Assembly: GCA_026874595.1 (NCBI GenBank)
Contig: CM049319.1
Location: 53,270,917-53,334,916 of the forward strand
Direction: 5' to 3'
Source of the DNA: Sipunculus nudus
Taxonomy: Eukaryota > Annelida > Sipuncula > Golfingiida > Sipunculidae
DNA length: 64,000 bases
In this document: piece by piece, positions 35,267 to 58,090 of the stretch
Numbering within the stretch: position 1 is the stretch's first letter
Layout: the number at the start of each line of letters is the position of its first letter
The notes under the pieces: model-generated
The model's database searches: none
What the model was told of the DNA's origin: nothing
What the model saw: only the letters and a program-made list of their open reading frames with translations
Position numbers and translations under genes: made by a program

Positions 35267-35329
35267 GTGAACTAAATATTTAGATTCCGTCAGAAAAAGT
35301 AAAATTTAATTTTTTGTTTCCCGGACAAA

Positions 35330-38155: not shown

Positions 38156-38384
38156 TTTGCTTGCCGGAAATCTTCGATTTCGGCAAGCATGTTCGTCAGT
38201 TGCGTATGTCTTTTTGTCTCTTTGTCTCTTTGTTGCTTGCCGGAAATCTTCGATTTCGGCAAGCATGTTCGTCAGTTGCGTATGTCTGTTTGTTGCTTGC
38301 CGGAAATCTTCGATTTCGGCAAGCATGTTCGTCAGTTGCATATGTCTGTTTGTCTCTTTGTCTGTTTGTTTGTTTGTTTGTTTG
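38156..38384 (+). repeat. Hairpin cluster 1 (three GCTTGCCGG hairpins)
   Basis: Three units carry arms GCTTGCCGGAAATC and GATTTCGGCAAGC separated by TTC, at 38159-38188, 38235-38264 and 38295-38324. Each is followed by ATGTTCGTCAGTTGC(G/A)TATG and (T)GTCTGTTTGT. A TTTG run closes the cluster. It marks the left edge of the satellite block. Confidence 0.85.
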
Positions 38385-39568
38385 TCACGACTCTCCAGGT
38401 CACACTTTTGCATCAATCAACTTGAAACTTACAGGCTTGATTGACAAACCGATTTCTAGGTGCCCTATTGTTTTTGGTCAACATTGCTCCAAGGTCAAGG
38501 GTCAAGGTCACGACAGGTATGGTTAACGGTTTTTGCACTATAACTTCGCCATAAATAGGCTTATCCACTTCTGCAATAGCTCATTTTTTTCGTCATCACC
38601 TGGCCTTTCTTTTGACATGTAGCTTACTTAAATTTGCCGTTACCATGGTTACATTTTTTTGGGCAAAAATCATGGAAATTGGAAATAACACGACCTTTTT
38701 TTGTAACTTTGTCAATTTTTAAGCTACAGACGTCTGGTTTTGGTCATTATGTACCTTATAGGCAGCTTGACATGATAAAACTGAAAGTCTCGCCAAATCT
38801 CGCACCATTTCTTGCCAAACGAGAGTTTCCGAGATTTCATTAATTATGACCTACAGGCCGCATTTTTTTAACAGTGGCTTTGAAATTGATATATTTTCTG
38901 TCATTTATAAATATCTCGAAATCAATTTTTCATTTTTGGGAAATAGCCACCAGGGGGCGTGGTACATGAAACACTGTAACATATCATTTTTCTGCAATAT
39001 CTAAAAAAATATTAAACGTGACACCATTTTTTTTGTGGTATCTGAAACTAGGAACATTGGCTAATTGCTCCGCACATGTAGCTTTGTACTGCCGTTACCA
39101 TGGTTACCAAATTTTGGGGTAAAACGTGACAACTTGAAAATACGAAGTTTACCTGCTTCTATCTCTGTTGATATTTGCCATAGAAAGGTCTGGTTTTCGG
39201 CGTTAGACAGCATCCGTCTAGTTCTTAGTCATTCAATCGCAAGTCTCGTCATATCTCGCACCGTTTCTCGTGAAACGAGAACACGTGACCATTCAAAGAA
39301 ATGCCTATAATTCTGTCATTTTTCACGCTACAGACACATGGTTTGCAGCGCTGGATAGCAGCTGACACTCGCAGTCACATTCAGGGGTCACATTGTTAGT
39401 CTCGTCAAATCTGGCGCCGTTTTTCGCCAAACCACGAAGACACGTGCCGTCGCCGCAAGTGGCGGCAGGGTCCTTGCGGTGGGCGGCCGGCGTGTGCAGA
39501 GGTCCGTGACGGCCTCTCCGGGCCCCATCTATTATCATACATGTTGGAGGCACAGTCACAACTTTATT
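38385..39568 (+). repeat. Module X, copy 1 (about 1.2 kb)
   Basis: It is nearly identical to 43516-44677 and 55391-56574. Landmarks in order are CACGACTCTCCAGGTCACA, AGGTCAAGGGTCAAGGTCAC, GTTACCATGGTTAC (38639 and 39094), AGCCACCAGGGGGCGTGG (38945), paired TCTCG/CGAGA dyads, and GTGGCGGCAGGGTCC. The 154-residue frame that is open in copies 2 and 3 is interrupted in this copy, which speaks against coding. Confidence 0.85.
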
Positions 39569-39780
39569 GCTTGCCGGAAATCTTCGATTTCGGCAAGCAT
39601 GTTCATCAGTTGCGTATGTCTGTTTGTCTCTTTGTTGCTTGCCGGAAATCTTCAATTTCCGCAAGCATGTTCGTCAGTTGCGTATGTCTGTTTGTCTGTT
39701 TGTCTGTTTGTTGCTTGCCGGAATCAGAGATTTCGACAAGTATGTTGATCAGTTCCGTTTGTTTGTTTGTCTGTATGTCC
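39569..39780 (+). repeat. Hairpin cluster 2
   Basis: GCTTGCCGG hairpins are at 39569-39598, 39637-39666 and (degenerate) 39713-39740, joined by GTTTGTCTGTTTGTCTG spacers. It follows module X copy 1 as clusters follow copies 2 and 3. Confidence 0.85.
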
Positions 39781-40720
39781 CCGCTCTACAGGCCACAATT
39801 TTGCACCAATCGTCCTGATACTTATAGATAGAGTGTATAATCGGTTCTTCTCGGAGCCTATTGTTTTTGGTCATGATCGGTCAAGGGTCAAGGTCAGGGT
39901 CACCAAAAAGCTCAAAAACGGTTTTTTCTTCATACCTTCGTCAAAAATAGCCGTAGGCACCTAATCTGTAGCCCGTTTTATTTGCCACTGCATGGCCACT
40001 TCCAACACTGCAAAATTGCCTCATTTCGCTGTTACCATGGTTACGCAATTTTGGGGAGAAATCATGGAATTTCGTGATATTTTTCAAATTTGCAGCAATT
40101 TTACTGATTCTGAGATATTTTATGTAACATAAGAATATCTCGAAACGGGTTTTTCAGATTTTGGAAATGGCCGCCAGGGGGCGGTGCAGATGAAAAAACA
40201 TGAAAATTTGTTTTGGTGCCATACCTCCAGAACTATTAAACATTGGGCCATTTCCATCACAGCACCTTAAACTAGGGTCCATGGGCTTATTTTTGCGCAT
40301 AGGTGCCAAAGTGCGCTATTGCCAGATTTCTCTATTTTTGGGGTAAAACCTTTGAATTTTGAAAATATGCAGTTTTCAGCTTCTAACTCTGTCAGTTTTT
40401 ATGCTAGAGAGGTCAAAATTTTTGCATCTTGTAGCCCTTGGTGAGTTCTCGGTGATCCAACCAAAAATCTTGCAAAATCTCGCACCGTTTCTCGTCGAAT
40501 GAGATTTCGCGATTTCACGGTGACATGCCCTATAGGCCACAGATATGCAGGCATCCTTTTGAAACTGATACATACCACGAAGACACGTGCAATTGCCGCA
40601 AGTGGCGACAGGGTCCTTACGGTGGGCAGCCGGCGTGTGCAGCGGTGCGTGTCGGCCTTTCGGGGCCCTATCTATTATCATACATGTTGGAGGCACAGTC
40701 CAGACTTTATTACTTGTATT
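39781..40720 (+). repeat. Module Y, copy 1
   Basis: It shares AAAATCGGTTCTTCTCGGAG-type text (here TAATCGGTTCTTCTCGGAGC) and CCTATTGTTTTTGG with 56700-58090. It contains GTTACCATGGTTAC (40031), TGGCCGCCAGGGGGCGGTGC (40168) and TCTCGTCGAATGAGA. It ends with the same GGTCCTTACGGTGGGCAGCC to GTTGGAGGCACAGTC segment that ends module X, then a hairpin at 40721-40750. Confidence 0.7.
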
Positions 40721-41427
40721 ACTTGCCGGAAATCTTCGATTTTCGAAAGCATGTTGGTCACCCGTGTATGTTTGTTCCTTCATCTTATGTATTATCCTAA
40801 TATCTCAAAAATTTTTTTCATTTTCCCGATATGGCCGCTAGGGGGCGCTGCACTTGACCCTTCCAAAAAAATCAGTTTTTGAACATATTTCCGTAAGAGT
40901 AAACCTATATTACACAAACTATAGCTTATTTTCTTTCTCTTGGTCTTCTTCAAAACATTGTCAAGTCACCTGGTGTCCATCTAGTGTCACTTTGTCAGTA
41001 TGTCTGTCTGTTTGTCATTTATCCTCATATTCGCCTGCTTGCTAGTTTTTGCACTTTAGATATAGCAATCAACAAGTCAGATATGTGGACGAATCCTTTT
41101 GAAACTATTACATCTTATGTCATACACTAATATCACGAAACGCATTTGTCGTCTTCAGGATATGTCCACTAGAGGGCGCTGCAGTCGAACATATCCAGTA
41201 TATCATTATTTGGCCATATCTCCAAAATTATAAGCCTCAATTACATAAACTATAGCTTATTTTCTTCCTCTGAGTCTTCTCCATAACCTGATTAAGTCAT
41301 CTTGTCTCCATCTTGTGTCCCTTTGTAAGTTTGTCTGTTTGTTTGTCAGTTGTCCTCAAATTCGCCGGCTTTTTGGTTCTTGAGTCTCACTGATAGCATT
41401 CTACAGGCCACTGTTTTGAAAGGATCA
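40721..41427 (+). repeat. Diverged sub-repeats of the satellite block
   Basis: Two copies of the 'ATATC(T)CGAAA... GGATATGGCCGCTAGGGGGC ... CTATAGCTTATTTTCTTCC' sub-unit are present, with CTCF-like strings at 40832-40851 and 41163-41182. They are related to the halves of the 1122-bp unit. Confidence 0.65.
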
Positions 41428-42671
41428 TTTTTAGCTCAGCTGACTTTCAGTCATTCTGGGCTATAGCGATGGGTCTTTGTCCGTCGTCCTTCAATCTGTC
41501 CATCCTGCTGACCGGCCGTCCGTCTGTTAGCAGGGCACAAATCGTAACTGTACGGGCTAGGGTCATGAACCCTATGTAGTCTTAGAGGTTCTAAAATGAT
41601 CTCCTTGCAAACCTGAAATTAGGTCACTGACCTATATTCTCGAAGTTACAGGGTGTGTATGCACCCCCCAGAAATAATTCTTTTAGCTAAAATTTTCATC
41701 CAAAAACTTCCATCTTTCACATACAGCTCATCTACCAACAGGGGAAGAACCATAATTATTTTGAAGTCAACAGGTCAAAGGTCAAGGTCACAGGAGTCCC
41801 TTTATTTAATGCCTGTGGATGCATTTTAAGCCAAATCTTTCATCCCAATTCTTTGAATTTTTACATATATTTCACCTTCTAAGAGGGAGAAGAATCCTAT
41901 AGATTTTTAGGTCACAAGATCAAAGATCAGGGTCACAGGATCCAATTTTTTTAAAAGGTTGTGAAAACATTTCAAGCTAGACATTTCATTCCAAACTTCC
42001 CAGCACTGATATCGCTTCTCTGCCAACAGGGGAACAGACCTGTTGAATTTGAGGTCAAAGGTGAAGTTCACTGCACCCACTTTTTGTGTGGAGTCATTTT
42101 CAGGAAACTTTTCAATCTATACCTTCCATTTGTCATATATGGCTGACCTACCAATAGGAGAAGAAGCCTATCGATGTCGAGTTCAAAAGGTCAAAGGTCA
42201 AGGACACATTACTTAATTATTCTAAATGGTTGTGAACATTTTGCAAGTGAAACTGTTCAACCCAAACCTTCAGTCTTTCACATATGCCATATCTATGCAT
42301 CACTCAATTTGGTTCAAACTTCATATTTATAAGCACCCGTTTCTCAATAATTCTTGCATGGATTTCCTTGATTTTTGCTATATATTTTGATCTTATATTT
42401 GCCCTTTTTGTTGTTTCTTTTGAGACTGACAGGTATCAAGCAAGCTATGGGAATAGTTACCGATAGCTTAACAATCATTCATTTTTCCTAAGACCATCAA
42501 GTCACTGTGTTTTAACCAGACATAGGTGATGTATATTGCTGTTGTCGTAGAAAATTTCAAAATATTGGCAAATTGGTTCTTCAAAATGTGACTGGAAGTT
42601 GTGAATCTCAGCCCATGATGTGGCAGGTCATGCTTGGCAGCTGAGCGTCATGACCCATGGGTCACTTGTTA
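41428..42671 (+). mobile_element. Family A element inserted in the satellite block (1.24 kb)
   Basis: The head is TTTTTAGCTCAGCTGACTTT at about 41428. The tail is GGCAGCTGAGCGTCATGACC then CATGGGTCACTTGTT at 42636-42671. On the left the satellite text breaks at TTTTGAAAGGATC, and on the right it resumes with AAACTATTACATCTTAC, the text that normally follows in intact sub-units. The interior repeats GGTCAAAGGTCAAGGTCACA blocks. It is non-coding. Confidence 0.82.
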
Positions 42672-43446
42672 AACTATTACATCTTACATCTTACAGTAAT
42701 ATCTCGAAACAGATTATTCATTTTCTGGATATTGCCAATAGGGGGCGTTGCACTCGCCTCTCCCCTATATATATTTCTTTGCCATATCTACAAAACTATA
42801 AACTTCAATTACAAACACTATGACTTATTGTCTTCCTTTGAATCTTCTCCATAATCTGAGTTAGTCATCTGGTCTTATTCTTGTGTCACTTTTTCAGTAT
42901 GTCTGTCTGTTTGTCAGTGATCCTCTATTTCACCTGCTTGCTGGATCTTGCGTCTTACAGTTAGCAATCTTCAGGCCACAGTTTTTCAGTATGTCTGTTT
43001 GTTTGTCAGTGATCCTCATTTTCGCCTGATTGCTGGATCTTGCGTCTTACAGTTAGCAATCTTCAGGCCACAGTTTTGAAGGAATCCTTTTGGAATTGGA
43101 ACATCTCTTACAATAATATATACATTTTGGAACATTTCTTACAATAATATCTCAAAAGAAAATTTTTTATTTTTGGGATATGGCCGCTAGGGGATGCTGC
43201 GGTAGAGCCTCCACACCATATCATTTTTTGGCCATATCTCCGACATTATAAACTCTACCTTCACTTGTAGTCTGTTTTCTCAGGTGTGTCAGTATATTTG
43301 TCTGTTTTGAGCTATGTCTGATTTCATGTTCTTTTGTGTGATATATGTCGTTCAACAGGCCAAACGTTCCAGCAATCGCTTTAAAAGTCATTCAATTGAT
43401 AGAAAACCATCAGTTTGTCCTGTTTCTCCATTTGTCTGTCATTTAA
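42672..43446 (+). repeat. Diverged sub-repeats after the family A insertion
   Basis: CTCF-like strings lie at 42732-42751 and 43181-43200. A 64-bp direct duplication (CAGTATGTCTGTTTGTCAGT to AGGCCACAGTTTT) lies at about 42895-43075. The text ends CCGGCAAGCTCTCGACCTAT, a half-hairpin that precedes module X copy 2. Confidence 0.6.
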
Positions 43447-44677
43447 GTCCGGCAAGCTCTCGACCTATGGTCGTCTAGTTTGTTTGTTTGTTTGTTTGTT
43501 TGTTTGTTTGTTTGTTTGTCACGACTCTCCAGGTCACATTTTTGCATCAATCAACTTGAAACTTACAGGCTTGATTGACAAACCGATTTCTAGGTGCCCT
43601 ATTGTTTTTGGTCAACATTGCTCCAAGGTCAAGGGTCAAGGTCACGACAGGTATGGTTAACGGTTTTTGCACTATAACTTCGCCATAAATAGGCTTATCC
43701 ACTTCTGCAATAGCTCATTTTTTTCGTCATCACCTGGCCTTTCTTTTGACATGTAGCTTACTTAAATTTGCCGTTACCATGGTTACATTTTTTTGGGCAA
43801 AAATCATGGAAATTGGAAATAACACGACCATTTTTTGTAACTTTGTCAATTTTTAAGCTACAGACGTCTGGTTTTGGTCATTATGTACCTTATAGGCAGC
43901 TTGACATGATAAAACTGAAAGTCTCGCCAAATCTCACACCATTTCTTGCCAAACGAGAGTTTCCGAGATTTCATTAATTATGACCTACAGGCCGCATTTT
44001 TTTAACAGTGGCTTTGAAATTGATATATTTTCTGTCATTTATAAATATCTCGAAATCAATTTTTCATTTTTGGGAAATAGCCACCAGGGGGCGTGGTACA
44101 TGAAACACTGTAACATATCATTTTTCTGCAATATCTCAAAAAATATTAAACGTGACACCATTTTTTTTGTGGTATCTGAAACTAGGAACATTGGCTTATT
44201 GCTCCGCACATGTAGCTTTGTACTGCCGTTACCATGGTTACCAAATTTTGGGGTAAAACGTGACAACTTGAAAATACGAAGTTTACCTGCTTCTATCTCT
44301 GTTGATATTTGCCATAGAAAGGTCTGGTTTTCGGCGTTAGACAGCATCCGTCTAGTTCTTAGTCATTCAATCGCAAGTCTCGTCATATCTCGCACCGTTT
44401 CTCGTGAAACGAGAACACGTGACCATTCAAAGAAATGCCTATAATTCTGTCATTTTTCACGCTACAGACACATGGTTTGCAGCGCTGGATAGCAGCTGAC
44501 ACTCGCAGTCACATTCAGGGGTCACATTGTTAGTCTCGTCAAATCTGGCGCCGTTTTTCGCCAAACCACGAAGACACGTGCCGTCGCCGCAAGTGGCGGC
44601 AGGGTCCTTACGGTGGGCGGCCGGCGTGTGCAGCGGTCCGTGACGGCCTCTCCGGGAGGCACAGTCACAACTTTATT
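43447..44677 (+). repeat. Module X, copy 2
   Basis: It opens with ten TTTG units (43478-43519), then is colinear and nearly identical with copy 1. The copies differ at isolated bases, such as CTCAAAAAAT here and CTAAAAAAAT in copy 1 at 39001. The 154-codon frame 43980-44444 is open here but resembles no protein. A 23-bp segment (GCCCCATCTATTATCATACA...) present in copies 1 and 3 before the hairpins is missing here. Confidence 0.85.
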
Positions 44678-44888
44678 GCTTGCCGGAAATCTTCGATTTC
44701 GGCAAGCATGTTCGTCAGTTGCGTATGTCTGTTTGTCTCTTTGTTGCTTGCCGGAAATCTTCGATTTCCGCAAGCATGTTCGTCAGTTGCGTATGTCTGT
44801 TTGTCTGTTTGTCTGTTTGTTGCTTGCCGGAATCAAAGATTTCGGCAAGCATATTACTCAGTTGCGTATGTCTGTTTGTCTGTTTGTC
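44678..44888 (+). repeat. Hairpin cluster 3
   Basis: GCTTGCCGG hairpins at 44678-44707, 44745-44774 and 44822-44850 are separated by GTCTGTTTGTCTG spacers. They link module X copy 2 to the first 1122-bp tandem unit. Confidence 0.85.
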
Positions 44889-47800
44889 TGTTTGTTTGTT
44901 TGTCACCACTCTCCTGGCCACAATTTTGCCACAATCACCTTGAAACTTACAGGGATGATGAAAAACATAATGTCTAGGTGCCCTATTGTTTTTGGTTAAA
45001 ATAGGTCAAAGGTCAAAGGTCAAGGTCACGACAGGTATGGTTAACGGTTTTTGCACTATAACTTCGCCATAAATAGGCTTATCCACTTCTGCAATAGCTC
45101 ATTTTTTTCGTCATCACCTGGCCTGTCATCTGATGTGTAGCTGACTCAAATTTGAAGTAACCATGGTAACAAATTTTTGGGGAAAAGTCATGATATTCGA
45201 AAATAAGGGGTCTAATTTTTGTAACTTTGTCAGTTTCAAAGCTAGAGTGATCTAGTTTTTTGCATCAGGTAGCATTCAACTAGTACTACAAGATTTTATA
45301 AAAAGTCTTGCAGTATCTCGAAAAATATCTCATGAATAGAGATATTTCGAGATTTCATTCATCTTGCGCCGAAGGCCACATTATTGCAGGAATCTTTTTG
45401 AAACTGACATATCATAAGTCCTACACTAGTATCTCGAAATGGTTTTTTCATTTTTTGAATATGGCTGCTAGGGGGCGCTGCACACGAACCTCACACACAT
45501 ATCATTACATTGGCCATATCTCTAAAACCCAAAGCCTCAATTACATAAACTATAGCTTATTTTTTCCCTCTGAGTCTTCTCCATAAACTGATGATGTCAT
45601 CTGGTCTCAATGTTGTGTCACTTTGTCATTGTGTCCGTCTGTTTGTCAGTTGTCCTGAAATTCGACTGCTTGCTCTTGCGTCTCACATATAGCATTCTAC
45701 AGGCTACAGTTTTGAAAGAATCCTTTTGAAACTATTACATCTTAAGTCTTACACTAATATCTCGAAACCAATTTTCCATTTTCCGGATATGGCCGCTAGG
45801 GGGCGCTGAACTCGAACCTCTCCCAACATATCATGCTTTGGCAATATCTCCAAAACTATAAACCTCAGTTACATAGACTGTAGCTTTTTTCTTCCTTTGA
45901 GTCGTCTCCATAATCTGGAGTAGTCATCTGGACTCAGTCTTGAGTCACTTTGTCAGTGTGTCCGTCTGTTTGTCAGTTGTCCTCAAATTCGCCTACTTGC
46001 TTGTTCTTGTTTGTTTGTTTGTTTGTCACCACTCTCCTGGCCACAATTTTGCCACAATAACCTTGAAACTTACAGGGATGTTGGAAAACATAATTTCTAG
46101 GTGCCCCATTGTTTTTGGTTAAAGTAGGTCAAAGGTCAAGGTCGAGGTCGTCAAAACTTCTCAAAACGTTTTTTTCTTCATATCTTTGTGACTATTAGTC
46201 GTATCTACTTCAACAATAGCTCATTTTAATCGTCATTCCAAGGCCTGTCATCTGGTGTGTAGCTGACTCAAATTTGCCGTAACCATGGTTACAATTTTTT
46301 GGGGAAAAGTCATGATATTCGAAAATAAGGGGTCTAATTTTTGTAACTTTGTCAGTTTTAAAGCTAGAGTGATCTAGTTTTTTGCATCAGGTAGCATTCA
46401 ACTAGTACTACAAGATTTTATAAAAAGTCCTGCAGTATCTCGAAAAATTTCTCGTGAATAGAGATGTTTCGAGATTTCATTCATCTTGCGCCGAAGGCCA
46501 CATTATTGCAGGAATCTTTTTGAAACTGACATATCATAAGTCCTACACTAGTATCTCGAAATGGTTTTTTCATTTTTTGAATATGGCTGCTAGGGGGCGC
46601 TGCACACGAACCTCACACACATATCATTACATTGGCCATATCTCTAAAACCCAAAGCCTCAATTACATAAACTATAGCTTATTTTTTCCCTCTGAGTCTT
46701 CTCCATAAACTGATGATGTCATCTGGTCTCAATGTTGTGTCACTTTGTCATTGTGTCCGTCTGTTTGTCAGTTGTCCTGAAATTCGACTGCTTGCTCTTG
46801 CGTCTCACATATAGCATTCTACAGGCTACAGTTTTGAAAGAATCCTTTTGAAACTATTACATCTTAAGTCTTACACTAATATCTCGAAAGCAATTTTCCA
46901 TTTTCCGGATATGGCCGCTAGGGGGCGCTGAACTCGAACCTCTCCCAACATATCATGCTTTGGCAATATCTCCAAAACTATAAACCTCAGTTACATAGAC
47001 TGTAGCTTTTTTCTTCCTTTGAGTCGTCTCCATAATCTGGAGTAGTCATCTGGACTCAGTCTTGAGTCACTTTGTCAGTGTGTCCGTCTGTTTGTCAGTT
47101 GTCCTCAAATTCGCCTACTTGCTTGTTCTTGTTTGTTTGTTTGTTTGTCACCACTCTCCTGGCCACAATTTTGCCACAATAACCTTGAAACTTACAGGGA
47201 TGTTGGAAAACATAATTTCTAGGTGCCCCATTGTTTTTGGTTAAAGTAGGTCAAAGGTCAAGGTCAAGGTCGTCAAAACTTCTCAAAACGTTTTTTTCTT
47301 CATATCTTTGTGACTATTAGTCGTATCTACTTCAACAATAGCTCATTTTAATCGTCATTCCAAGGCCTGTCATCTGGTGTGTAGCTGACTCAAATTTGCC
47401 GTAACCATGGTTACAATTTTTTGGGGAAAAGTCATGATATTCGAAAATAAGGGATCTTATTTTTCTAACTTTGTCAGTTTTAAAGCTAGAGTGATCTAGT
47501 TTTTTGCATCAGGTAGCATTCAACTAGTACTACAAGATTTTATAAAAAGTCTTGCAGTATCTCGAAAAATATCTCGTGAATAGAGATATTTCGAGATTTC
47601 ATTCATCTTGCGCCGAAGGCTACATTATTGCAGGAATCTTTTTGAAACTGACATATCATAAGTCCTACACTAGTATCTCGAAATGGTTTTTCATTTTTTG
47701 AATATGGCTGCTAGGGGGCGCTGCACACGAACCTCACACACATATCATTACATTGGCCATATCTCTAAAACCCAAAGCCTCAATTACATAAACTATAGCT

Positions 47801-50800
47801 TATTTTTTCCCTCTGAGTCTTCTCCATAAACTGATGATGTCATCTGGTCTCAATGTTGTGTCACTTTGTCATTGTGTCCGTCTGTTTGTCAGTTGTCCTG
47901 AAATTCGACTGCTTGCTCTTGCGTCTCACATATAGCATTCTACAGGCTACAGTTTTGAAAGAATCCTTTTGAAACTATTACATCTTAAGTCTTACACTAA
48001 TATCTCGAAAGCAATTTTCCATTTTCCGGATATGGCCGCTAGGGGGCGCTGAACTCGAACCTCTCCCAACATATCATGCTTTGGCAATATCTCCAAAACT
48101 ATAAACCTCAGTTACATAGACTGTAGCTTTTTTCTTCCTTTGAGTCGTCTCCATAATCTGGAGTAGTCATCTGGACTCAGTCTTGAGTCACTTTGTCAGT
48201 GTGTCCGTCTGTTTGTCAGTTGTCCTCAAATTCGCCTACTTGCTTGTTCTTGTTTGTTTGTTTGTTTGTCACCACTCTCCTGGCCACAATTTTGCCACAA
48301 TAACCTTGAAACTTACAGGGATGTTGGAAAACATAATTTCTAGGTGCCCCATTGTTTTTGGTTAAAGTAGGTCAAAGGTCAAGGTCGAGGTCGTCAAAAC
48401 TTCTCAAAACGTTTTTTTCTTCATATCTTTGTGACTATTAGTCGTATCTACTTCAACAATAGCTCATTTTAATCGTCATTCCAAGGCCTGTCATCTGGTG
48501 TGTAGCTGACTCAAATTTGCCGTAACCATGGTTACAATTTTTTGGGGAAAAGTCATGATATTTGAAAATAAGGGGTCTAATTTTTGTAACTTTGTCAGTT
48601 TTAAAGCTAGAGTGATCTAGTTTTTTGCATCAGGTAGCATTCAACTAGTACTACAAGATTTTATAAAAAGTCTTGCAGTATCTCGAAAAATTTCTCGTGA
48701 ATAGAGATATTTCGAGATTTCATTCATCTTGCGCCGAAGGCCACATTATTGCAGGAATCTTTTTGAAACTGACATATCATAAGTCCTACACTAGTATCTC
48801 GAAATGGTTTTTTCATTTTTTGAATATGGCTGCTAGGGGGCGCTGCACACGAACCTCACACACATATCATTACATTGGCCATATCTCTAAAACCCAAAGC
48901 CTCAATTACATAAACTATAGCTTATTTTTTCCCTCTGAGTCTTCTCCATAAACTGATGATGTCATCTGGTCTCAATGTTGTGTCACTTTGTCATTGTGTC
49001 CGTCTGTTTGTCAGTTGTCCTGAAATTCGACTGCTTGCTCTTGCGTCTCACATATAGCATTCTACAGGCTACAGTTTTGAAAGAATCCTTTTGAAACTAT
49101 TACATCTTAAGTCTTACACTAATATCTCGAAAGCAATTTTCCATTTTCCGGATATGGCCGCTAGGGGGCGCTGAACTCGAACCTCTCCCAACATATCATG
49201 CTTTGGCAATATCTCCAAAACTATAAACCTCAGTTACATAGACTGTAGCTTTTTTCTTCCTTTGAGTCGTCTCCATAATCTGGAGTAGTCATCTGGACTC
49301 AGTCTTGAGTCACTTTGTCAGTGTGTCCGTCTGTTTGTCAGTTGTCCTCAAATTCGCCTACTTGCTTGTTCTTGTTTGTTTGTTTGTTTGTCACCACTCT
49401 CCTGGCCACAATTTTGCCACAATAACCTTGAAACTTACAGGGATGTTGGAAAACATAATTTCTAGGTGCCCCATTGTTTTTGGTTAAAGTAGGTCAAAGG
49501 TCAAGGTCAAGGTCGTCAAAACTTCTCAAAACGTTTTTTTCTTCATATCTTTGTGACTATTAGTCGTATCTACTTCAACAATAGCTCATTTTAATCGTCA
49601 TTCCAAGGCCTGTCATCTGGTGTGTAGCTGACTCAAATTTGCCGTAACCATGGTTACAATTTTTTGGGGAAAAGTCATGATATTCGAAAATAAGGGATCT
49701 TATTTTTCTAACTTTGTCAGTTTCAAAGCTAGAGTGATCTAGTTTTTTGCATCAGGTAGCATTCAACTAGTACTACAAGATTTTATAAAAAGTCTTGCAG
49801 TATCTCGAAAAATATCTCGTGAATAGAGATATTTCGAGATTTCATTCATCTTGCGCCGAAGGCCACATTATTGCAGGAATCTTTTTGAAACTGACATATC
49901 ATAAGTCCTACACTAGTATCTCGAAATGGTTTTTTCATTTTTTGAATATGGCTGCTAGGGGGCGCTGCACACGAACCTCACACACATATCATTACATTGG
50001 CCATATCTCTAAAACCCAAAGCCTCAATTACATAAACTATAGCTTATTTTTTCCCTCTGAGTCTTCTCCATAAACTGATGATGTCATCTGGTCTCAATGT
50101 TGTGTCACTTTGTCATTGTGTCCGTCTGTTTGTCAGTTGTCCTGAAATTCGACTGCTTGCTCTTGCGTCTCACATATAGCATTCTACAGGCTACAGTTTT
50201 GAAAGAATCCTTTTGAAACTATTACATCTTAAGTCTTACACTAATATCTCGAAACCAATTTTCCATTTTCCGGATATGGCCGCTAGGGGGCGCTGAACTC
50301 GAACCTCTCCCAACATATCATGCTTTGGCAATATCTCCAAAACTATAAACCTCAGTTACATAGACTGTAGCTTTTTTCTTCCTTTGAGTCGTCTCCATAA
50401 TCTGGAGTAGTCATCTGGACTCAGTCTTGAGTCACTTTGTCAGTGTGTCCGTCTGTTTGTCAGTTGTCCTCAAATTCGCCTACTTGCTTGTTCTTGTTTG
50501 TTTGTTTGTTTGTCACCACTCTCCTGGCCACAATTTTGCCACAATAACCTTGAAACTTACAGGGATGTTGGAAAACATAATTTCTAGGTGCCCCATTGTT
50601 TTTGGTTAAAGTAGGTCAAAGGTCAAGGTCAAGGTCGTCAAAACTTCTCAAAACGTTTTTTTCTTCATATCTTTGTGACTATTAGTCGTATCTACTTCAA
50701 CAATAGCTCATTTTAATCGTCATTCCAAGGCCTGTCATCTGGTGTGTAGCTGACTCAAATTTGCCGTAACCATGGTTACAATTTTTTGGGGAAAAGTCAT

Positions 50801-52430
50801 GATATTCGAAAATAAGGGATCTTATTTTTCTAACTTTGTCAGTTTTAAAGCTAGAGTGATCTAGTTTTTTGCATCAGGTAGCTCTCAACTAGTACTACAA
50901 GATTTAATTACAAGTCTTGCAGTATCTCGTAAAATATCTCGTGAATAGAGATATTTCGAGATTTCATTCATCTTGCGCCGAAGGCCACATTATTGCAGGA
51001 ATCTTTTTGAAACTGACATATCATAAGTCCTACACTAGTATCTCGAAATGGTTTTTTCATTTTTTGAATATGGCTGCTAGGGGGCGCTGCACACGACCCT
51101 CACACAGATATCATTACATTGGCCATATCTCTAAAACCCAAAGCCTCAATTACATAAACTATAGCTTATTTTTTCCCTCTGAGTCTTCTCCATAAACTGA
51201 TGATGTCATCTGGTCTCAATGTTGTGTCACTTTGTCATTGTGTCCGTCTGTTTGTCAGTTGTCCTGAAATTCGCCTGCTTGCTCTTGCGTCTCACATATA
51301 GCATTCTACAGGCTACAGTTTTGAAAGAATCCTTTTGAAACTATTACATCTTAAGTCTTACACTAATATCTCGAAACCAATTTTCCATTTTCCGGATATG
51401 GCCGCTAGGGGGCGCTGAACTCGAACCTCTCCCAACATATCATGCTTTGGCAATATCTCCAAAACTATAAACCTCAGTTACATAGACTGTAGCTTTTTTC
51501 TTCCTTTGAGTCGTCTCCATAATCTGGAGTAGTCATCTGGACTCAGTCTTGAGTCACTTTGTCAGTGTGTCCGTCTGTTTGTCAGTTGTCCTCAAATTCG
51601 CCTACTTGCTTGTTCTTGTTTGTTTGTTTGTTTGTCACCACTCTCCTGGCCACAATTTTGCCACAATAACCTTGAAACTTACAGGGATGTTGGAAAACAT
51701 AATTTCTAGGTGCCCCATTGTTTTTGGTTAAAGTAGGTCAAAGGTCAAGGTCAAGGTCGTCAAAACTTCTCAAAACGTTTTTTTCTTCATATCTTTGTGA
51801 CTATTAGTCGTATCTACTTCAACAATAGCTCATTTTAATCGTCATTCCAAGGCCTGTCATCTGGTGTGTAGCTGACTCAAATTTGCCGTAACCATGGTTA
51901 CAATTTTTTTGGGAAAAGTCATGATATTCGAAAATAAGGGATCTTATTTTTCTAACTTTGTCAGTTTTAAAGCTAGAGTGATCTAGTTTTTTGCATCAGG
52001 TAGCTCTCAACTAGTACTACAAGATTTTATTACAAGTCTTGCAGTATCTCGTAAAATATCTCGTGAATAGAGATATTTCGAGATTTCATTCATCTTGCGC
52101 CAACGGCCACATTATTGCAGGAATCTTTTTGAAACTGACATATCATAAGTCCTACACTAGTATCTCGAAATTGTTTTTTCATTTTTTGAATATGTCTGCT
52201 AGGGGGCGCTGCACACGACCCTCACACAGATATCATTACATTGGCCATATCTCTAAAACCCAAAGCCTCAATTACATAAACTATAGCTTATTTTTTCCCT
52301 CTGAGTCTTCTCCATAAACTGATAATGTCATCTGATCTCAATGTTGTGTCACTTTGTCATTGTGTCCGTCTGTTTGTCAGTTGTCCTGAAATTCGCCTGC
52401 TTGCTCTTGCGTCTCACATATAGCATTCTA
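44889..52430 (+). repeat. 1122-bp tandem array, about 6.7 units
   Basis: Unit starts (the TTTG run before TCACCACTCTCCTGG) are at about 44889, 46012, 47134, 48255, 49377, 50499 and 51621, with a period of 1121-1122 bp. Units 2-6 differ at only a handful of positions. Each unit contains a DR1-like AGGTCAAAGGTCA, GTAACCATGGTTAC, a TCTCG dyad hairpin, and two diverged halves each with a CTCF-like string (GGCTGCTAGGGGGCGCTGC and GGCCGCTAGGGGGCGCTGA). The period is divisible by three, so the same 60- and 92-codon frames recur in each unit without being genes. Units 6-7 accumulate changes, and similarity decays after about 52430. Confidence 0.95.
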
Positions 52431-53220
52431 TAGGCCACAGTTTTGACGGAATCCTTTTGAAACTATTACATCTTATGTCTTACACTAATATCTAGAAATA
52501 AATTTTTCATTATAGGGATATGGCCACTAGTGGGCGCTGCACACGACCATCACACACATACCATTGTATTGGCCATATCTCTACACCCAAAACCTCAGTT
52601 ACATAAACTTTAGCTTATTTTCTTCCTTTGAGTCTTCTCCTTAACCTGATTAAGGCATCTGGTTTCAATCTTCTGTCACTTTGTCAGTGTGTCCATCTGT
52701 TTGTCCGTTATCCTCAAAGTCGCCTGCCTGCTGGTTCTTACGCTTTACATATAGCATTCTACAGGCCACAGCTTTGACGGAATCCTTTTGAAACTGGGAC
52801 ATCTCATGTCATACACTGATAATACGAAACGCATTTGTTGTCTTCGAAATATGTCCGCCAGAGGGCACTACAGTCGAGCCTCCCAAGTATATCATTAATT
52901 CGCCATACCTCCAAAACTAAAAATCTAAATTACATAAATTATAACTCATTTTCTTCCTTTGAATCTTCTCCATAACTAGGTTAAGTCATCTGGTGTCAAT
53001 CTTGTCTCACAAAGTCAGTATGTCTGTCTGTTCGTCTTTTGTTGTCAGCTTTGTCTGCTTGCCTGTTCTTTTGTCTCATATGTCATTCTACGGGCCACAT
53101 ATTCTCAGCAATGTCCCTGAGGGTCATTCCATTAATAGAAAACCAACAATATGTTCTGTCTCTCCGTCTGTGTTTCACTTCCGATTTCCGGCAAGCGTTC
53201 GACCTATGGTCGTCTAGTTT
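52431..53220 (+). repeat. Diverged end of the tandem array
   Basis: Two older sub-unit copies carry CTCF-like strings at 52521-52540 (TGGCCACTAGTGGGCGCTGC) and 52852-52871 (TGTCCGCCAGAGGGCACTAC). The stretch ends GATTTCCGGCAAGC with GACCTATGGTC, a half-hairpin. Confidence 0.65.
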
Positions 53221-53570
53221 GTTTGTTTGTTTGTTTGTTTGTTTGTTTGTTTGTCACGACTCTCCAGGTCACATTTTTGCATCAATCAACTTGAAACTTA
53301 CAGGCTTGATTGACAAACCGATTTCTAGGTGCCCTATTGTTTTTGGTCAACATTGCTCCAAGGTCAAGGGTCAAGGTCACGACAAGTATGGTTAACGGTT
53401 TTTGCACTATAACTTCGCCATAAATAGGCTTATCCACTTCTGCAATAGCTCATTTTTTTCGTCATCACCTGGCCTTTCTTTTGACATGTAGCTTACTTAA
53501 ATTGGCCGTTACCATGGTTACATTTTTTGGGCAAAAATCATGGAAATTTGAAATAACACGACCATTTTTT
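53221..53570 (+). repeat. Module X, truncated copy
   Basis: It matches the first about 330 bases of module X (TTTG run, CACGACTCTCCAGGTCAC, AGGTCAAGGGTCAAGGTCAC, GTTACCATGGTTAC at about 53509). It then passes without a break into the 149-bp array at the 'TTTTTAAGCTAG' step. Confidence 0.75.
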
Positions 53571-55180
53571 GTAACTTTGTCAGTTTTTAAGCTAGGCAGA
53601 TCTAGTTTTCGGCATTTTGTTCCACATTACCAGCTTGACACGACAGAACTAAAAGTCACGCCAAATCTCGCGCCATATCTCGTCAAACGAGAAAAAACGA
53701 GACTTCGCGGAAATGCTCATAACTCGGCGACTTTTACAGCTGGACAGGTCTGGTTTTCGGCATTTCGTTCCACCAATCAAGCTTGACACAACAGAGCTGC
53801 AAGACAGGCCAAATCTCGCACCGTATCTCGTCAAACGAGAAAACACGGGATTTCACGGAAATGCTTATAACTGGGCCAGTTTTACAGCTAGACACGTCTG
53901 GTTTTCGGCATTTAGTTCCTCTAGACCAGCTTGACACGACAGATATGCAAGTGCCGGTACCATGGTTACATTTTTTGGGCAAAAATCATGGAAATTGGAA
54001 ATAACACGACCTTTTTTTGTAACTTTGTCAGTTTTTAAGCTAGGCAGATCTAGTTTTCGGCATTTTGTTCCACATGACCAGCTTGACACGACAGAACTGA
54101 AAGTCACGCCAAATCTCGCGCCATATCTCGTCAAACGAGAAAAAACGAGACTTCGCGGAAATGCTTATAACTCGGCGACTTTTACAGGGAGACAGGTCTG
54201 GTTATCGGCATTTCGTTCCACCAAACAAGCTTGACACGACAGAGCTGCAAGACAGGCCAAATCTCGCACCGTATCTCGTCAAACGAGAAAACACGGGATT
54301 TCACGGAAATGCTTATAACTGGGCCAGTTTTACAGTTAGACACGTCTGGTTTTCGGCATTTAGTTCCACTAGACCAGCTTGACACGACAGATATGCAAGT
54401 CTGGCAAAATCTCGCGCCATATCTCGTCAAACGAGAAAACACGAAATTTCACGGAAATGCTTATAACTCGGCCAGTTTTACAGCTAGACACTTCTGGTTT
54501 CCGGCATTTCCTTCCACATGACCAGCTTGACACGATAGATGTACAAGTCAGGCCAAATCTCGCACCCTATCTCGTCAAACGAGAAAACACGAGATATCAC
54601 GGAAATGCTCATAACTCGGCGAGTTTTACAGCTGGACAGGTCTAGTTTTCGGCATTTTGTTTCACATGTCCTGCTGGACATGACAGAACTGAAAGTCAGG
54701 CCGAATGTCGCACCGTATCTCGTCAAACTAGAAAACATGAGATTTCACGGCATTGGTTATAACTCGGCGAGTGTTACAGATAGACACGTGTGGTTTTCGG
54801 CATTTTGTTCCACTAGACCAGCTTGACACGACAGACATGCATGTCAGGCAAAATCTCGCACCGTATCCCGTCAAACGAGAAAACACGAGATTTCACGGAA
54901 CTGCAGCTAGACAGGTCTAGTTTTCGGCATTTAGTTCCACATGACCCGCTTGACATGACAGAACTCCAAGTCAGGCACAAGCTCGCACCATTTCCCGTCA
55001 AACGAGAAAACACGAGATTTCATGCAAATGCTTATAACCCAGCGGCTTTTATAGCTAGACAGGTCTAGTTTTCGGCATTTCATATCATTTGGCCAGCTTG
55101 ACATGACAAACCTGAAAACGTGTCACTGCTTCTTGTCAAACGAGATTAACGGGATTTCATGAAAAAATTTTGAACTTGGT
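53570..55180 (+). repeat. 149-bp tandem array, about ten units
   Basis: Each unit has TTTTACAGCTAGACA(G/C)GTCT, GGTTTTCGGCATTT(C/A)GTTCC, CAGCTTGACACGACAGA, then a dyad: outer arms AAATCTCG and CGAGATTT, inner arms TCTCGT and ACGAGA around CAA. The unit period is 148-149 bp. A larger 447-bp period (three units) is visible because the segment with GTTACCATGGTTAC-like text recurs at 53509 and about 53956. The repeated frames on both strands are not coding. Confidence 0.88.
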
Positions 55181-55390
55181 CCCTTTTACACTAGAAAGAT
55201 ATGCAGCTGTTAAAGGTCAGCATGCATAAATAAACATATTATCCGTTTCTGCTGCCCCCACATTGTTGCTCATTCATATGACTGTTTCTACATGCACTCT
55301 CTGTCTATCTGTCTCTATCATTTCCATTTCCGGCAAGCGCGTGACCTCTGGTCATCTTGTCTCTTTGTCTGTTTGTTTGTTTGTTTGTTT
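55181..55390 (+). repeat. Junction between the 149-bp array and module X copy 3
   Basis: It contains TTTCCGGCAAGCGCGTGACC and TCTGGTC, again a half of the GCTTGCCGG hairpin, then a TTTG run. It is the same kind of junction as at 43447 and 53183. Confidence 0.6.
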
Positions 55391-56574
55391 GTCACGACTC
55401 TCCAGGTCACACTTTTGCATCAATCAACTTGAAACTTACAGGCTTGATTGACAAACCGATTTCTAGGTGCCCTATTGTTTTTGGTCAACATTGCTCCAAG
55501 GTCAAGGGTCAAGGTCACGACAGGTATGGTTAACGGTTTTTGCACTATAACTTCGCCATAAATAGGCTTATCCACTTCTGCAATAGCTCATTTTTTTCGT
55601 CATCACCTGGCCTTTCTTTTGACATGTAGCTTACTTAAATTTGCCGTTACCATGGTTACATTTTTTTGGGCAAAAATCATGGAAATTGGAAATAACACGA
55701 CCATTTTTTGTAACTTTGTCAATTTTTAAGCTACAGACGTCTGGTTTTGGTCATTATGTACCTTATAGGCAGCTTGACATGATAAAACTGAAAGTCTCGC
55801 CAAATCTCGCACCATTTCTTGCCAAACGAGAGTTTCCGAGATTTCATCAAATATGACCTACAGGCCGCATTTTTTTAACAGTGGCTTTGAAATTGATATA
55901 TTTTCTGTCATTTATAAATATCTCGAAATCAATTTTTCATTTTTGGGAAATAGCCACCAGGGGGCGTGGTACATGAAACACTGTAACATATCATTTTTCT
56001 GCAATATCTCAAAAAATATTAAACGTGACACCATTTTTTTTGTGGTATCTGAAACTAGGAACATTGGCTTATTGCTCCGCACATGTAGCTTTGTACTGCC
56101 GTTACCATGGTTACCAAATTTTGGGGTAAAACGTGACAACTTGAAAATACGAAGTTTACCTGCTTCTATCTCTGTTGATATTTGCCATAGAAAGGTCTGG
56201 TTTTCGGCGTTAGACAGCATCCGTCTAGTTCTTAGTCATTCAATCGCAAGTCTCGTCATATCTCGCACCGTTTCTCGTGAAACGAGAACACGTGACCATT
56301 CAAAGAAATGCCTATAATTCTGTCATTTTTCACGCTACAGACACATGGTTTGCAGCGCTGGATAGCAGCTGACACTCGCAGTCACATTCAGGGGTCACAT
56401 TGTTAGTCTCGTCAAATCTGGCGCCGTTTTTCGCCAAACCACGAAGACACGTGCCGTCGCCGCAAGTGGCGGCAGGGTCCTTACGGTGGGCGGCCGGCGT
56501 GTGCAGCGGTCCGTGACGGCCTCTCCGGGCCCCATCTATTATCATACATGTTGGAGGCACAGTCACAACTTTAT
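55391..56574 (+). repeat. Module X, copy 3
   Basis: It is nearly identical to copies 1 and 2 over 1.2 kb. The 154-codon frame (55853-56317) is open as in copy 2. The CTCF-like AGCCACCAGGGGGCGTGG is at about 55951-55970. Confidence 0.85.
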
Positions 56575-56720
56575 TGCTTGCCGGAAATCTTCGATTTCGG
56601 CAAGCATGTTCGTCAGTTGCGTATGTCTGTTTGTTGCTTGCCGGAAATCTTCGATTTTCGCAAGCATGTTGATCACCCGCGTATGTTTGTTTGTTTGTTT
56701 GTCTGTCTGTTTGTCTGTAT
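56575..56720 (+). repeat. Hairpin cluster 4
   Basis: GCTTGCCGG hairpins are at 56575-56604 and 56635-56664 (the second ends GATTTTCGCAAGC), followed by a TTTG/TCTG run. Confidence 0.85.
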
Positions 56721-58090
56721 GTACACGCGCTAGAGGCCACAGTTTTTAAGCAATCGCTCTGAAACTTTAACATTAAGTGTAAAATCGGTTCTTCTCGGAG
56801 CCTATTGTTTTTGGCCTTGACCGTTCAAAGGTCAAGGTCAGGGTTACCAAAAACCCTTAAAACAGATTTTTCTTCATATCTTCGTCAATAATAATCGTAG
56901 CTGCTAAATCTGTAGCTCATTTTGTTCCTCATTATGTTAGCTTTCCATGTGCTGACAAATATGTCCGGTCAATGGTTACCATGGTAACGTATTTTGGGGG
57001 GAAAATCAGAAATTCGAAAATTTCCCTCCAAATTTCTCATTTTTTAAGTTAGAGAGGCCTAGTTTTTTGCAATGCGTAGCATTTAATATGCTCTGTGCGA
57101 AATTAATGTAAGTCTCGCAAAATCTCGTGCCATGTGTCGTCAAATGAGACTTTTCGAGATTTCATTAAAAACGATTTAGAGGTGGCAGTTTTACAGCTAA
57201 GGTTCTAAAAGTGACATATTTTCTGTTTTTCTGTATTATCTCGAACTTGTTTTTTCATTTTTTGAAATTAGCCACCAGGGGGCGTGGTACTGGAAACACT
57301 GCAACTTACCATTTTTCTGCAATACCAAAAATAATATTAAACGTGGCACAATGTTTACTGTCTTATCTGAAACTAGGATCGTCGGCTTATTCCTGCGTAC
57401 ATGTAGCTTTGCGCTGCTGTTACCATGGTAAGCAAGTTTTGGGGTAAAACTTGGCAATCTGAAAATAATAAGTTTTTTGCTTCTATCTCTGTAAATATTT
57501 ATACTACAAGTGTCTAGTTTTCTGCATGAGGTAGCATTCCCTTGTCACTAATGCAGTTAATTGCAAGTCTCGTAGAATCTCGCTCTGTTTTCCGTCAAAC
57601 GAGAAATTACGAGATTTCACAGAAATGCTTATAACTTGGTCACCTTTTCGGCTAAAGAGGAGCAGTTTTCAGCATTTTGTTGCGTTTTGGGAGCTTAACA
57701 AGATAATAACTTATATCTCGCCACATCTCGTACCATCTCCCGCCAAACGAGAATATTCGAGAATTCGAACAAATGTCTATATCTCTGTCATTTTAATGCC
57801 AGAGATTTTATTTTTCTATTGTTCAAGATTCACTTGACTAGTTTGAAGTGACAAAATTGAATATCTCGTCATATCTCGCATCATTTCTTGTCAAACGAGA
57901 ACATGGGACCATTCAAAGATACGCCTATAATTCTGTTATTTTAATGCTGAAGACCTTTAGTTTTCAGCATTCGATAGCGTCTAACACTCTCGGTCACATT
58001 ATGTGTTTATATTGTAAGTTTCGTCAAATCTGGGATCGTTTTTTCTTCAAATAAAAAAGTACATCCTATTGCCGTGACCATAAGTGGCGG
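56721..58090 (+). repeat. Module Y, copy 2, and diverged continuation
   Basis: AAAATCGGTTCTTCTCGGAG and CCTATTGTTTTTGG match copy 1 at 39840. It includes GTTACCATGGTAAC (a perfect palindrome, 56976-56989), AGCCACCAGGGGGCGTGG (57270), and several TCTCGTC/ACGAGA dyads. Similarity fades after the AAGTGGCGGCAG text near 58080, the right edge of the satellite block. Confidence 0.7.

What the first reader, a model, noticed from the sequence alone, without database searches (positions are those of the whole stretch)
38900..57290. About two dozen CTCF-like motifs in one satellite block, all in the same orientation
Known: the bilaterian CTCF core consensus is close to TGGCCACCAGGGGGCGCTA. Seen: every module of the 20-kb block carries such a string on the + strand. 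Examples are 38945, 40168, 40832, 41163, 42732, 43181, 44078, 45462, 45790, 46584, 46912, 47705, 48033, 48827, 49155, 49949, 50277, 51071, 51399, 52193, 52521, 52852, 55951 and 57269. The flanks diverge between modules far more than this string does: variants such as CCACCAGGGGGCG, CCGCTAGGGGGCG, CCAATAGGGGGCG and CCACTAGAGGGCG keep the core. Inference: the repeats may spread or concentrate CTCF sites, forming a boundary inside or near the synaptojanin gene.
Basis: partly seen in the sequence, partly recalled or inferred. Interest (0 to 1): 0.85.

Follow-up and report, generated by a model that had tools for sequence, protein, structure and literature searches.

The report
Jumping DNA carrying CTCF-like sites
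A non-coding rolling-circle jumping element in this mollusc-like genome carries rows of same-facing CTCF-type DNA signals and has scattered thousands of them across the chromosomes, including about two dozen inside a synaptojanin intron, so it may be shaping how the genome folds.

Summary
In detail: all 24 listed strings are present, all on +, each at 15 bits or more with an approximate CTCF matrix; shuffles of the block give 0.1. A flank profile with the core blanked out finds the same 24 modules.

The block is a cluster of HINEs (non-autonomous Helentrons) with subTIRs, terminal palindrome and T-rich target, supported by one insertion compared with empty copies. The core lies in their ~330-bp central monomers. 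Genome-wide the exact word set occurs 5,808 times against 1 for the reversed pattern. In loci chosen without the core, 111 of 123 full monomers score 15 bits or more.

On ancestral branches the core is the slowest 19-bp window; on terminal branches it changes at about the flank rate. The motif thus seems kept in propagating lineages and mostly decays after insertion. A likely CTCF orthologue with 11 fingers exists.

CTCF binding, and any boundary in synaptojanin, are untested. New variant of a known kind: TE-borne CTCF-like sites, here on a Helentron.

The parts
38155..58130 (+). Cluster of HINE (non-autonomous Helentron) elements in one orientation; ends approximate
   Evidence: subTIRs, 3' palindromes and 24 central monomers; outer limits judged by eye
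38944..38962 (+). CTCF-like core 1
   Evidence: 22.7 bits
40168..40186 (+). CTCF-like core 2
   Evidence: 27.3 bits
40832..40850 (+). CTCF-like core 3
   Evidence: 26.0 bits
41163..41181 (+). CTCF-like core 4
   Evidence: 23.7 bits
42732..42750 (+). CTCF-like core 5
   Evidence: 18.8 bits
43181..43199 (+). CTCF-like core 6 (degenerate, GGGGATG)
   Evidence: 15.9 bits
44078..44096 (+). CTCF-like core 7
   Evidence: 22.7 bits
45462..45480 (+). CTCF-like core 8
   Evidence: 18.7 bits
45790..45808 (+). CTCF-like core 9
   Evidence: 26.0 bits
46584..46602 (+). CTCF-like core 10
   Evidence: 18.7 bits
46912..46930 (+). CTCF-like core 11
   Evidence: 26.0 bits
47705..47723 (+). CTCF-like core 12
   Evidence: 18.7 bits
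48033..48051 (+). CTCF-like core 13
   Evidence: 26.0 bits
48827..48845 (+). CTCF-like core 14
   Evidence: 18.7 bits
49155..49173 (+). CTCF-like core 15
   Evidence: 26.0 bits
49949..49967 (+). CTCF-like core 16
   Evidence: 18.7 bits
50277..50295 (+). CTCF-like core 17
   Evidence: 26.0 bits
51071..51089 (+). CTCF-like core 18
   Evidence: 18.7 bits
51399..51417 (+). CTCF-like core 19
   Evidence: 26.0 bits
52193..52211 (+). CTCF-like core 20
   Evidence: 15.3 bits
52521..52539 (+). CTCF-like core 21
   Evidence: 22.9 bits
52852..52870 (+). CTCF-like core 22
   Evidence: 21.3 bits
55951..55969 (+). CTCF-like core 23
   Evidence: 22.7 bits
57269..57287 (+). CTCF-like core 24
   Evidence: 22.7 bits
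38159..38188 (+). HINE 5' subTIR with paired inverted repeat (further GCTTGCCGGAA starts at 38235, 38295, 39569, 39637, 39713, 44678, 44746, 44822, 56576, 56636)
   Evidence: 38155-38195 folds at -13.3 kcal/mol, z -6.5
43449..43479 (+). HINE 3' end: subTIR remnant + palindrome CGACCTATGGTCG + TCTAG/T
53183..53218 (+). HINE 3' end: subTIR + palindrome CGACCTATGGTCG + TCTAG/T
   Evidence: weak hairpin, z -1.9
55326..55360 (+). HINE 3' end, TGACCTCTGGTCATCTTG variant
35116..35268 (+). Synaptojanin 5-phosphatase exon upstream of the block ([16 protein letters not shown]); limits approximate
   Evidence: by motif only
32765..32962 (+). Synaptojanin 5-phosphatase exon; limits approximate
   Evidence: PF22669, E 6.6e-14
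27726..28109 (+). Open frame holding a synaptojanin 5-phosphatase exon
   Evidence: PF22669, E 3.2e-19
6610..7050 (+). Open frame holding a synaptojanin SacI-domain exon
   Evidence: PF02383, E 1.5e-8

Best explanation
The block is a cluster of HINEs, non-coding Helentrons moved by rolling-circle transposition with a protein supplied by relatives. Their central ~330-bp monomers each hold one CTCF-type binding site in a fixed orientation. Transposition, plus tandem growth of the central repeats, has spread an estimated order of ten thousand such sites through the genome, mostly as same-facing arrays. The host CTCF orthologue most likely binds the better-matching copies. The core is retained in propagating element lineages more than any other 19-bp part of the monomer, so binding probably helps the element (for example by keeping its chromatin open or recruiting cohesin in the germ line). 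Once inserted, most copies change at about the flank rate. Young same-facing arrays such as this one would then act as one-sided barriers to loop extrusion. Shown: element class, dispersal, orientation, ancestral constraint, CTCF gene. Inferred: binding, benefit to the element, effect on folding.
For: Motif: 24 strong sites, all +, against 0.1 in shuffles. Checks without selection on the core: a core-masked profile finds the same 24 modules; by eye 40 of 40 loci fetched by an upstream 27-mer carry a recognisable core (40 of 100 listed places fetched); over loci chosen by flank (40 of 100 listed), by core-masked search (5 of 58 hits) or by element 3' end (20 of 100 listed), 111 of 123 full monomers score 15 bits or more (82 of 89; 29 of 34). 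Dispersal: 3,080 + 2,728 exact words against 0 + 1 for the reversed pattern; 26 of 30 separately fetched word loci match the core-masked profile. Element: HINE anatomy; 1,853 + 1,670 3' ends against 0 + 0; empty site in 10 of 10 aligned copies of the target repeat (10 of 40 listed); no stop-to-stop frame over 109 aa in the solitary copy; 143 Helitron_like_N matches, several in open frames over 2,000 aa. Orientation: among the first 100 listed words, 48 of 49 neighbouring pairs within 5 kb share a strand, 0 of 10,000 label shuffles reach this. Constraint in the core-free set of 82 distinct monomers: ancestral-branch changes 1.21 per core column against 2.20 in flanks, rank 1 of 153 windows, p 0.017; terminal branches 3.32 against 3.30. 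Accepted core changes cost the CTCF matrix less than when whole positions are permuted (p 0.015; 0.024 with CpG sites kept apart). Host: a likely CTCF orthologue with 11 fingers; finger 3-5 base-contact residues identical to human in 12 of 12; CTCF words with G at position 7, seen in 0 of 124 and 1 of 82 distinct monomers, occur 153 + 140 times genome-wide against 1 + 0.
Against: No binding or contact data exist here. The matrix is approximate and recalled. Position 5 (C), which CTCF needs, changed 13 and 11 times, mostly to T as CpG decay gives; over all 19 positions matrix information and change do not correlate (rho -0.20, p 0.42). Over all branches the core is not significantly slower in the core-free set (p 0.16, rank 25 of 153), and a first flank-anchored test ranked it 23 of 285. 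For ancestral events alone the matrix-cost test is not significant (p 0.06, and 0.22 with CpG kept apart), whereas for terminal events it is (p 0.004 and 0.024), and without CpG columns terminal branches hint at weak constraint (ratio about 0.75; p 0.059, 0.15): this sits badly with a clean 'kept in the lineage, neutral after insertion' story. A second segment, TTTGGCCATATCTCCAAAA, is as slow as the core over all branches. Fingers 6 and 7 differ from human at 5 of 8 contact residues. Of 20 loci chosen by the 3' end, 6 have no monomer hit and 8 no full monomer in the 2.6-3.6 kb taken, so the core is not a feature of every element with these ends.
Confidence: 0.6

Rival explanations
1. The core is kept for the element's own replication, for example as a binding site of the Helentron Rep/helicase or as a signal in the tandem repeats, and only resembles a CTCF site.
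For: Constraint is on ancestral branches, as expected for any element function; a neighbouring segment is also slow.
Against: The best kept positions C4, C7, A9, G10, G13 and G14 are spaced as in CTCF sites; accepted changes favour CTCF-tolerated positions. The signals proposed for Helentrons are the subTIRs and stem loops at the ends (PMC4067079, passages).
Confidence: 0.2
2. Host-selected boundary: the synaptojanin cluster, and others, are preserved by the organism as insulators.
For: A same-facing array of 24 sites inside a gene, a strong barrier design by analogy with vertebrates; terminal changes are biased to CTCF-tolerant positions.
Against: Terminal-branch change is close to flank change (ratio 0.93; 1.01). 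The family has members on at least 15 contigs, so this cluster does not stand out.
Confidence: 0.1
3. Neutral hitch-hiking: the founder monomer happened to contain a CTCF-like word; copying and gene conversion keep it, with no binding or selection.
For: Terminal branches at the flank rate; non-significant overall rate test in the core-free set (p 0.16).
Against: Core ranks 1 of 153 on ancestral branches in two overlapping data sets; matrix-cost test p 0.015 and 0.024.
Confidence: 0.2
4. Another C2H2 zinc-finger protein from the large set in this genome binds the core, for example as a silencer of the element.
For: 446 C2H2 matches to the CTCF query, dense on contig C16.
Against: No sequence link to this motif; CTCF-type words that the family hardly uses are also far above chance.
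Confidence: 0.06

Closest known systems
Cg_HINE elements of the Pacific oyster (PMC7492417; passages and section 7 read)
   Same: 5' subTIR with complementary IR, GTCY-type microsatellite, central tandem repeats, 3' subTIR and palindrome, T-rich insertion, wide dispersal
   Different: Oyster monomers are mostly 140-180 bp; here ~330 bp with a CTCF-like core. CTCF occurs 0 times in that paper's main text. Sequence homology of monomers not tested
HINE / DINE-1 Helentron families (PMC4067079; passages read)
   Same: subTIR near the 5' end, 3' palindrome, T-rich target, no target duplication, no coding
   Different: 3' subTIR ends about 21 nt before the element's last base, closer than the 38-60 bp given for mite HINEs
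Rodent SINE B2-B4 carrying CTCF sites (PMC7520972; passages read)
   Same: A non-autonomous transposon family adds many CTCF sites to a genome
   Different: Retrotransposon with ChIP-proven binding, normally one site per copy (recalled); here a rolling-circle DNA element with several same-facing sites per copy and no binding data
ISX Helitron of Drosophila miranda (described in PMC6598467; passages read)
   Same: A Helitron spreads binding sites for a chromatin complex
   Different: Dosage-compensation complex on one chromosome; here CTCF-type sites genome-wide
CTCF-like motif at Euprymna scolopes TAD boundaries (PMC9023564; passages read)
   Same: CTCF-type motif in a mollusc
   Different: Not tied to a transposon in the passages read; motif direction not identified according to PMC10658182 (passages)

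Membership tests
HINE (non-autonomous Helentron) | subTIR of about 11-15 bp next to the 5' T-rich junction | tested here: met
   TT|GCTTGCCGGAA(A)TC at 5' ends in the window and arrays scanned
HINE (non-autonomous Helentron) | Inverted repeat paired with the 5' subTIR | tested here: met
   GCTTGCCGGAAATC-TTC-GATTTCGGCAAGC; fold z -6.5
HINE (non-autonomous Helentron) | Microsatellite and central tandem repeats | tested here: met
   GTCT/GTTT run then monomers
HINE (non-autonomous Helentron) | 3' subTIR followed by a terminal palindrome | tested here: met
   GATTTCCGGCAAGC then CGACCTATGGTCG; such ends 3,523 times against 0; hairpin energy only weak (z -1.9)
HINE (non-autonomous Helentron) | Insertion in T-rich DNA without target duplication | tested here: met
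   One insertion (L090) compared with 10 empty copies; only one join was searched
HINE (non-autonomous Helentron) | No coding capacity | tested here: met
   Longest stop-to-stop frame 109 aa in L090; no family search of it was run
HINE (non-autonomous Helentron) | Autonomous partner with shared ends | not tested
   Helitron_like_N loci exist; their ends were not fetched
CTCF binding site | Match to the CTCF matrix above chance | tested here: met
   matrix recalled and approximate
CTCF binding site | Cognate CTCF with conserved base-contact fingers | tested here: inconclusive
   Fingers 3-5 identical in 12 of 12 contacts, fingers 6-7 in 3 of 8
CTCF binding site | Variation concentrated at CTCF-tolerant positions | tested here: inconclusive
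   Matrix-cost test p 0.015/0.024; rank correlation over 19 positions p 0.42, without CpG positions p 0.043
CTCF binding site | Occupancy in vivo or binding in vitro | not testable with these tools
   -
Chromatin boundary | Hi-C insulation or loop anchor | not testable with these tools
   -
TE-derived CTCF site family (SINE B2 type) | Carrier is a SINE retrotransposon | tested here: not met
   Carrier is a HINE

The most novel reading that the evidence does not exclude
A Helentron lineage keeps a CTCF site as its own tool: the element is selected to bind the host's main loop-anchor protein during its propagation, and as a by-product it supplies most of the strong CTCF-type sites of the genome as same-facing arrays. 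Loop architecture in this lineage would then be largely written, and continually rewritten, by a rolling-circle transposon.
Probability: 0.28. Interest if true: 0.88.

Novelty: new variant of a known kind. Interest (0 to 1): 0.65.

Why it matters
Whether CTCF and motif direction organise spiralian genomes was open in 2023: one review says the only in-depth study was in a squid and that no motif directionality was identified (PMC10658182, passages), another that it was the only study implicating loop extrusion in a spiralian (PMC10658181, passages). Thousands of near-identical sites in known orientation, with intact and decayed copies side by side, are a natural experiment: Hi-C and CUT&RUN over these arrays would show whether CTCF is bound and whether barriers are one-sided. 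It would also be a case, outside mammals and outside SINEs, of a transposon spreading CTCF sites, with signs that the benefit is to the transposon. I saw no report of CTCF sites on Helitrons or Helentrons in the listings for 'Helitron + CTCF' (20 of 38 papers listed), 'CTCF + rolling-circle' (15 of 37), 'CTCF + bivalve + Hi-C' (4 of 4), 'CTCF + transposable element + mollusc' (15 of 22), the same with 'oyster' (10 of 14) and 'Helentron + transcription factor binding' (7 of 7). These were judged from titles, abstract openings and term counts; passages were read in eight papers. Preprints and most subscription papers are not held.

Tried and rejected
Plain satellite array: rejected, because a solitary 1,989-bp copy with HINE ends and an empty site exists. 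Selection of genome loci by the core: a real risk, since the L075-L088 arrays were chosen around listed word or flank hits, so I repeated the test on loci chosen by flank, by core-masked search and by 3' end. The smaller first repeat (48 distinct monomers) pointed the same way but was not significant (ancestral ratio 0.61, rank 3, p 0.09); the larger one was. The sets overlap. The per-event shuffles (0 of 5,000) were too lenient because events at one position are not independent; I rely on the permutation of whole positions. Haemocyanin search to tell bivalve from gastropod: no match, but no control rang either, so it says nothing firm. No gene tree was made for the CTCF candidate. Conservation was counted by Fitch parsimony on FastTree trees without bootstrap; gene conversion between copies could blur branch assignment.

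Full report
WHAT IS THERE. Twenty-four CTCF-like 19-mers lie at 38944-57287, all on +. They score 15.3 to 27.3 bits with an approximate matrix recalled from memory, against a mean of 0.1 such hits in 20 dinucleotide shuffles of the block and 3 in the rest of the window. At 90% flank identity they form 11 module types; the 45462/45790 pair recurs as a ~1,122-bp unit (coordinates). A profile built from the flanks of those 11, with the core blanked out, recovers the same 24 modules in the window and no other hit below E 0.25. The 148-bp repeat at 53.6-54.9 kb has no core.

WHERE IT SITS. Open frames at 6.6, 27.7 and 32.8 kb match the SacI and 5-phosphatase domains. A third 5-phosphatase exon, recognised by PAWTDRVLW only, is at about 35.1 kb. 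A DUF1866 match, recalled as the domain that follows the phosphatase in synaptojanin, is at C14:53351424, about 80.5 kb from the window start. All are on +. The block is therefore inside the gene, in an intron after the 35.1-kb exon. The next exon downstream was not located.

WHAT CARRIES THE MOTIF. The block contains repeated TT|GCTTGCCGGAAATC-TTC-GATTTCGGCAAGC starts followed by GTCT/GTTT runs, and GATTTCCGGCAAGC...CGACCTATGGTCGTCTAG|TTT ends or variants. In locus L090 one copy stands alone: 1,989 bp with four monomers, all in one direction. Searching the genome with its two flanks joined gave 40 listed matches of 85-90% identity (40 of 3,197 candidates scored), all spanning the join. Ten were fetched and aligned and show an uninterrupted T-rich site with no duplication. 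This is the HINE plan as described for mite, Drosophila and oyster elements (PMC4067079 passages; PMC7492417 passages and section 7). The longest stop-to-stop frame in L090 is 109 aa. Helitron_like_N domains occur at 143 places, several in open frames above 2,000 aa, so a protein source exists; shared ends were not tested.

HOW MANY. CCRCYAGRGGGCGCTG occurs 3,080 + 2,728 times in 1.43 Gb, against 0 + 1 for the reversed pattern. Of 30 word loci fetched separately (of 100 listed), 26 match the core-masked profile at E below 1e-5 and 4 do not. In loci chosen without the core, 33 of 123 full monomers hold such an exact word and 111 of 123 score 15 bits or more; the share is lower (29 of 34) in the loci chosen by the 3' end. 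A rough product (5,808 x 26/30 x 123/33 x 111/123) gives about 17,000 CTCF-grade sites; the samples come mostly from contig C1, so only the order of magnitude should be trusted. Hits of a core-masked consensus lie on contigs C1-C14 and C17, 16 of the 58 at one identical top score, a sign of recent spread; some of these are close together on C1 and may be larger duplications (40 of 2,926 candidates scored). Among the first 100 listed words, 48 of 49 neighbouring pairs within 5 kb share a strand.

IS THE CORE SPECIAL. (1) Forty flank-anchored loci: all 40 keep a recognisable core by eye, which ranked only 23 of 285 windows by majority frequency. (2) Distinct monomers, some from loci chosen near a core: with 97, core 3.6 changes per column against 5.4, p 0.010, rank 4 of 153; with 124, 5.1 against 6.9, p 0.029, rank 5 of 153, and without CpG columns 3.9 against 6.7, p 0.003. 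(3) 82 distinct monomers from loci chosen without the core: over all branches 4.5 against 5.5, p 0.16, rank 25; without CpG columns 3.5 against 5.3, p 0.027. Splitting by branch, the core is rank 1 of 153 on ancestral branches in both the 124 set (1.63 against 3.14, p 0.004) and the 82 set (1.21 against 2.20, p 0.017), while on terminal branches it is near the flanks (3.47 against 3.73; 3.32 against 3.30). Without CpG columns the terminal ratio is about 0.75 (p 0.059; p 0.15), so weak constraint after insertion is not excluded. A smaller core-free subset of 48 gave rank 3, p 0.09. The sets share loci. Accepted core changes lower the CTCF matrix score less than when whole positions are permuted, with CpG positions kept apart: p 0.0011 in the 124 set and 0.024 in the 82 set. 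In the 124 set this comes from terminal events (p 0.024) more than ancestral ones (p 0.22, only 31 events). Against the reading, C5 changes often through CpG decay, matrix information and change do not correlate over all 19 positions (rho -0.20, p 0.42; without CpG positions -0.53, p 0.043), and a segment 46 bp downstream is as slow over all branches.

THE HOST PROTEIN. The best match to the CTCF finger region is one open frame at C11:67037824, 54% identical over 226 residues; the next by E-value is 40% (150 of 1,988 candidates scored). Its 801-aa frame has 11 C2H2 fingers and matches CTCF chains first in the PDB set (E 1.3e-113). No tree was made. Helix positions -1, 2, 3 and 6 of fingers 3, 4 and 5 are identical to human (12 of 12); finger 6 keeps 1 of 4 and finger 7 keeps 2 of 4 (human finger 3 read from the alignment). 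That fingers 3-7 read the core is recalled. Words with G at position 7 (CCAGYAGRKGGCGCYR), a letter seen there in 0 of 124 and 1 of 82 distinct monomers, occur 153 + 140 times against 1 + 0, so CTCF-type words are enriched apart from this family, although some listed ones are near-identical neighbours and may lie in other repeats. A similar site is in the window at 20769 (-).

MECHANISM. Shown: a dispersed HINE family carries one CTCF-type site per monomer, in one orientation, and ancestral lineages preserve it. Inferred: the CTCF orthologue binds it; binding aids the element; young arrays act as directional barriers. The near-flank rate on terminal branches makes host preservation of most single copies unlikely. 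So the cluster in synaptojanin is better seen as a load of potential CTCF sites brought by a transposon than as an old boundary; whether it insulates is open.

PLACEMENT. What it works like: TE-borne CTCF site expansion as with rodent SINE B2 (PMC7520972, passages), and Helitron-borne spread of binding sites as with ISX (PMC6598467, passages). What it is: a HINE family. The combination was not seen in the searches listed under Why it matters.

Noticed in passing
Genome contigs C16 (about 23-62 Mb), C7, C9, C11: The CTCF finger query returned 446 C2H2 zinc-finger matches, many in dense clusters: a large zinc-finger gene set.
   Followed up: no
window 37800-58100: Besides the CTCF-like cores the block holds 16 matches per strand to GTWACCATGGWWAC (recalled resemblance to RFX X-boxes) and 12 GGTCAAGGTCA words, all on + (recalled resemblance to nuclear-receptor sites); the rest of the window has 0 and 2.
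   Followed up: partly
monomer, about 46 bp downstream of the core start: TTTGGCCATATCTCCAAAA is a second slowly changing segment of the monomer.
   Followed up: no
G000:C1:7643437-7658865: Head-to-head arrays: 11 minus-strand words followed by 4 plus-strand words, the one mixed cluster among 51 in the listed hits.
   Followed up: no
G000:C1 about 63-67 Mb: The listed flank 27-mers crowd in this part of the contig, including what look like larger duplications.
   Followed up: no
window 53581-54904: 148-bp tandem repeat without the core inside the same HINE cluster, perhaps alternative cargo.
   Followed up: no
window 58523-59925: 365-bp tandem repeat of another kind just after the block.
   Followed up: no
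window 20769-20787 (-): TGACCAGCAGATGGCGCTT, a canonical-looking CTCF-type site outside the repeat block, 22.5 bits.
   Followed up: partly
L094-L103 and flanks of L090: The target of the solitary HINE is itself a dispersed repeat with 40 copies listed at 85-90% identity.
   Followed up: partly
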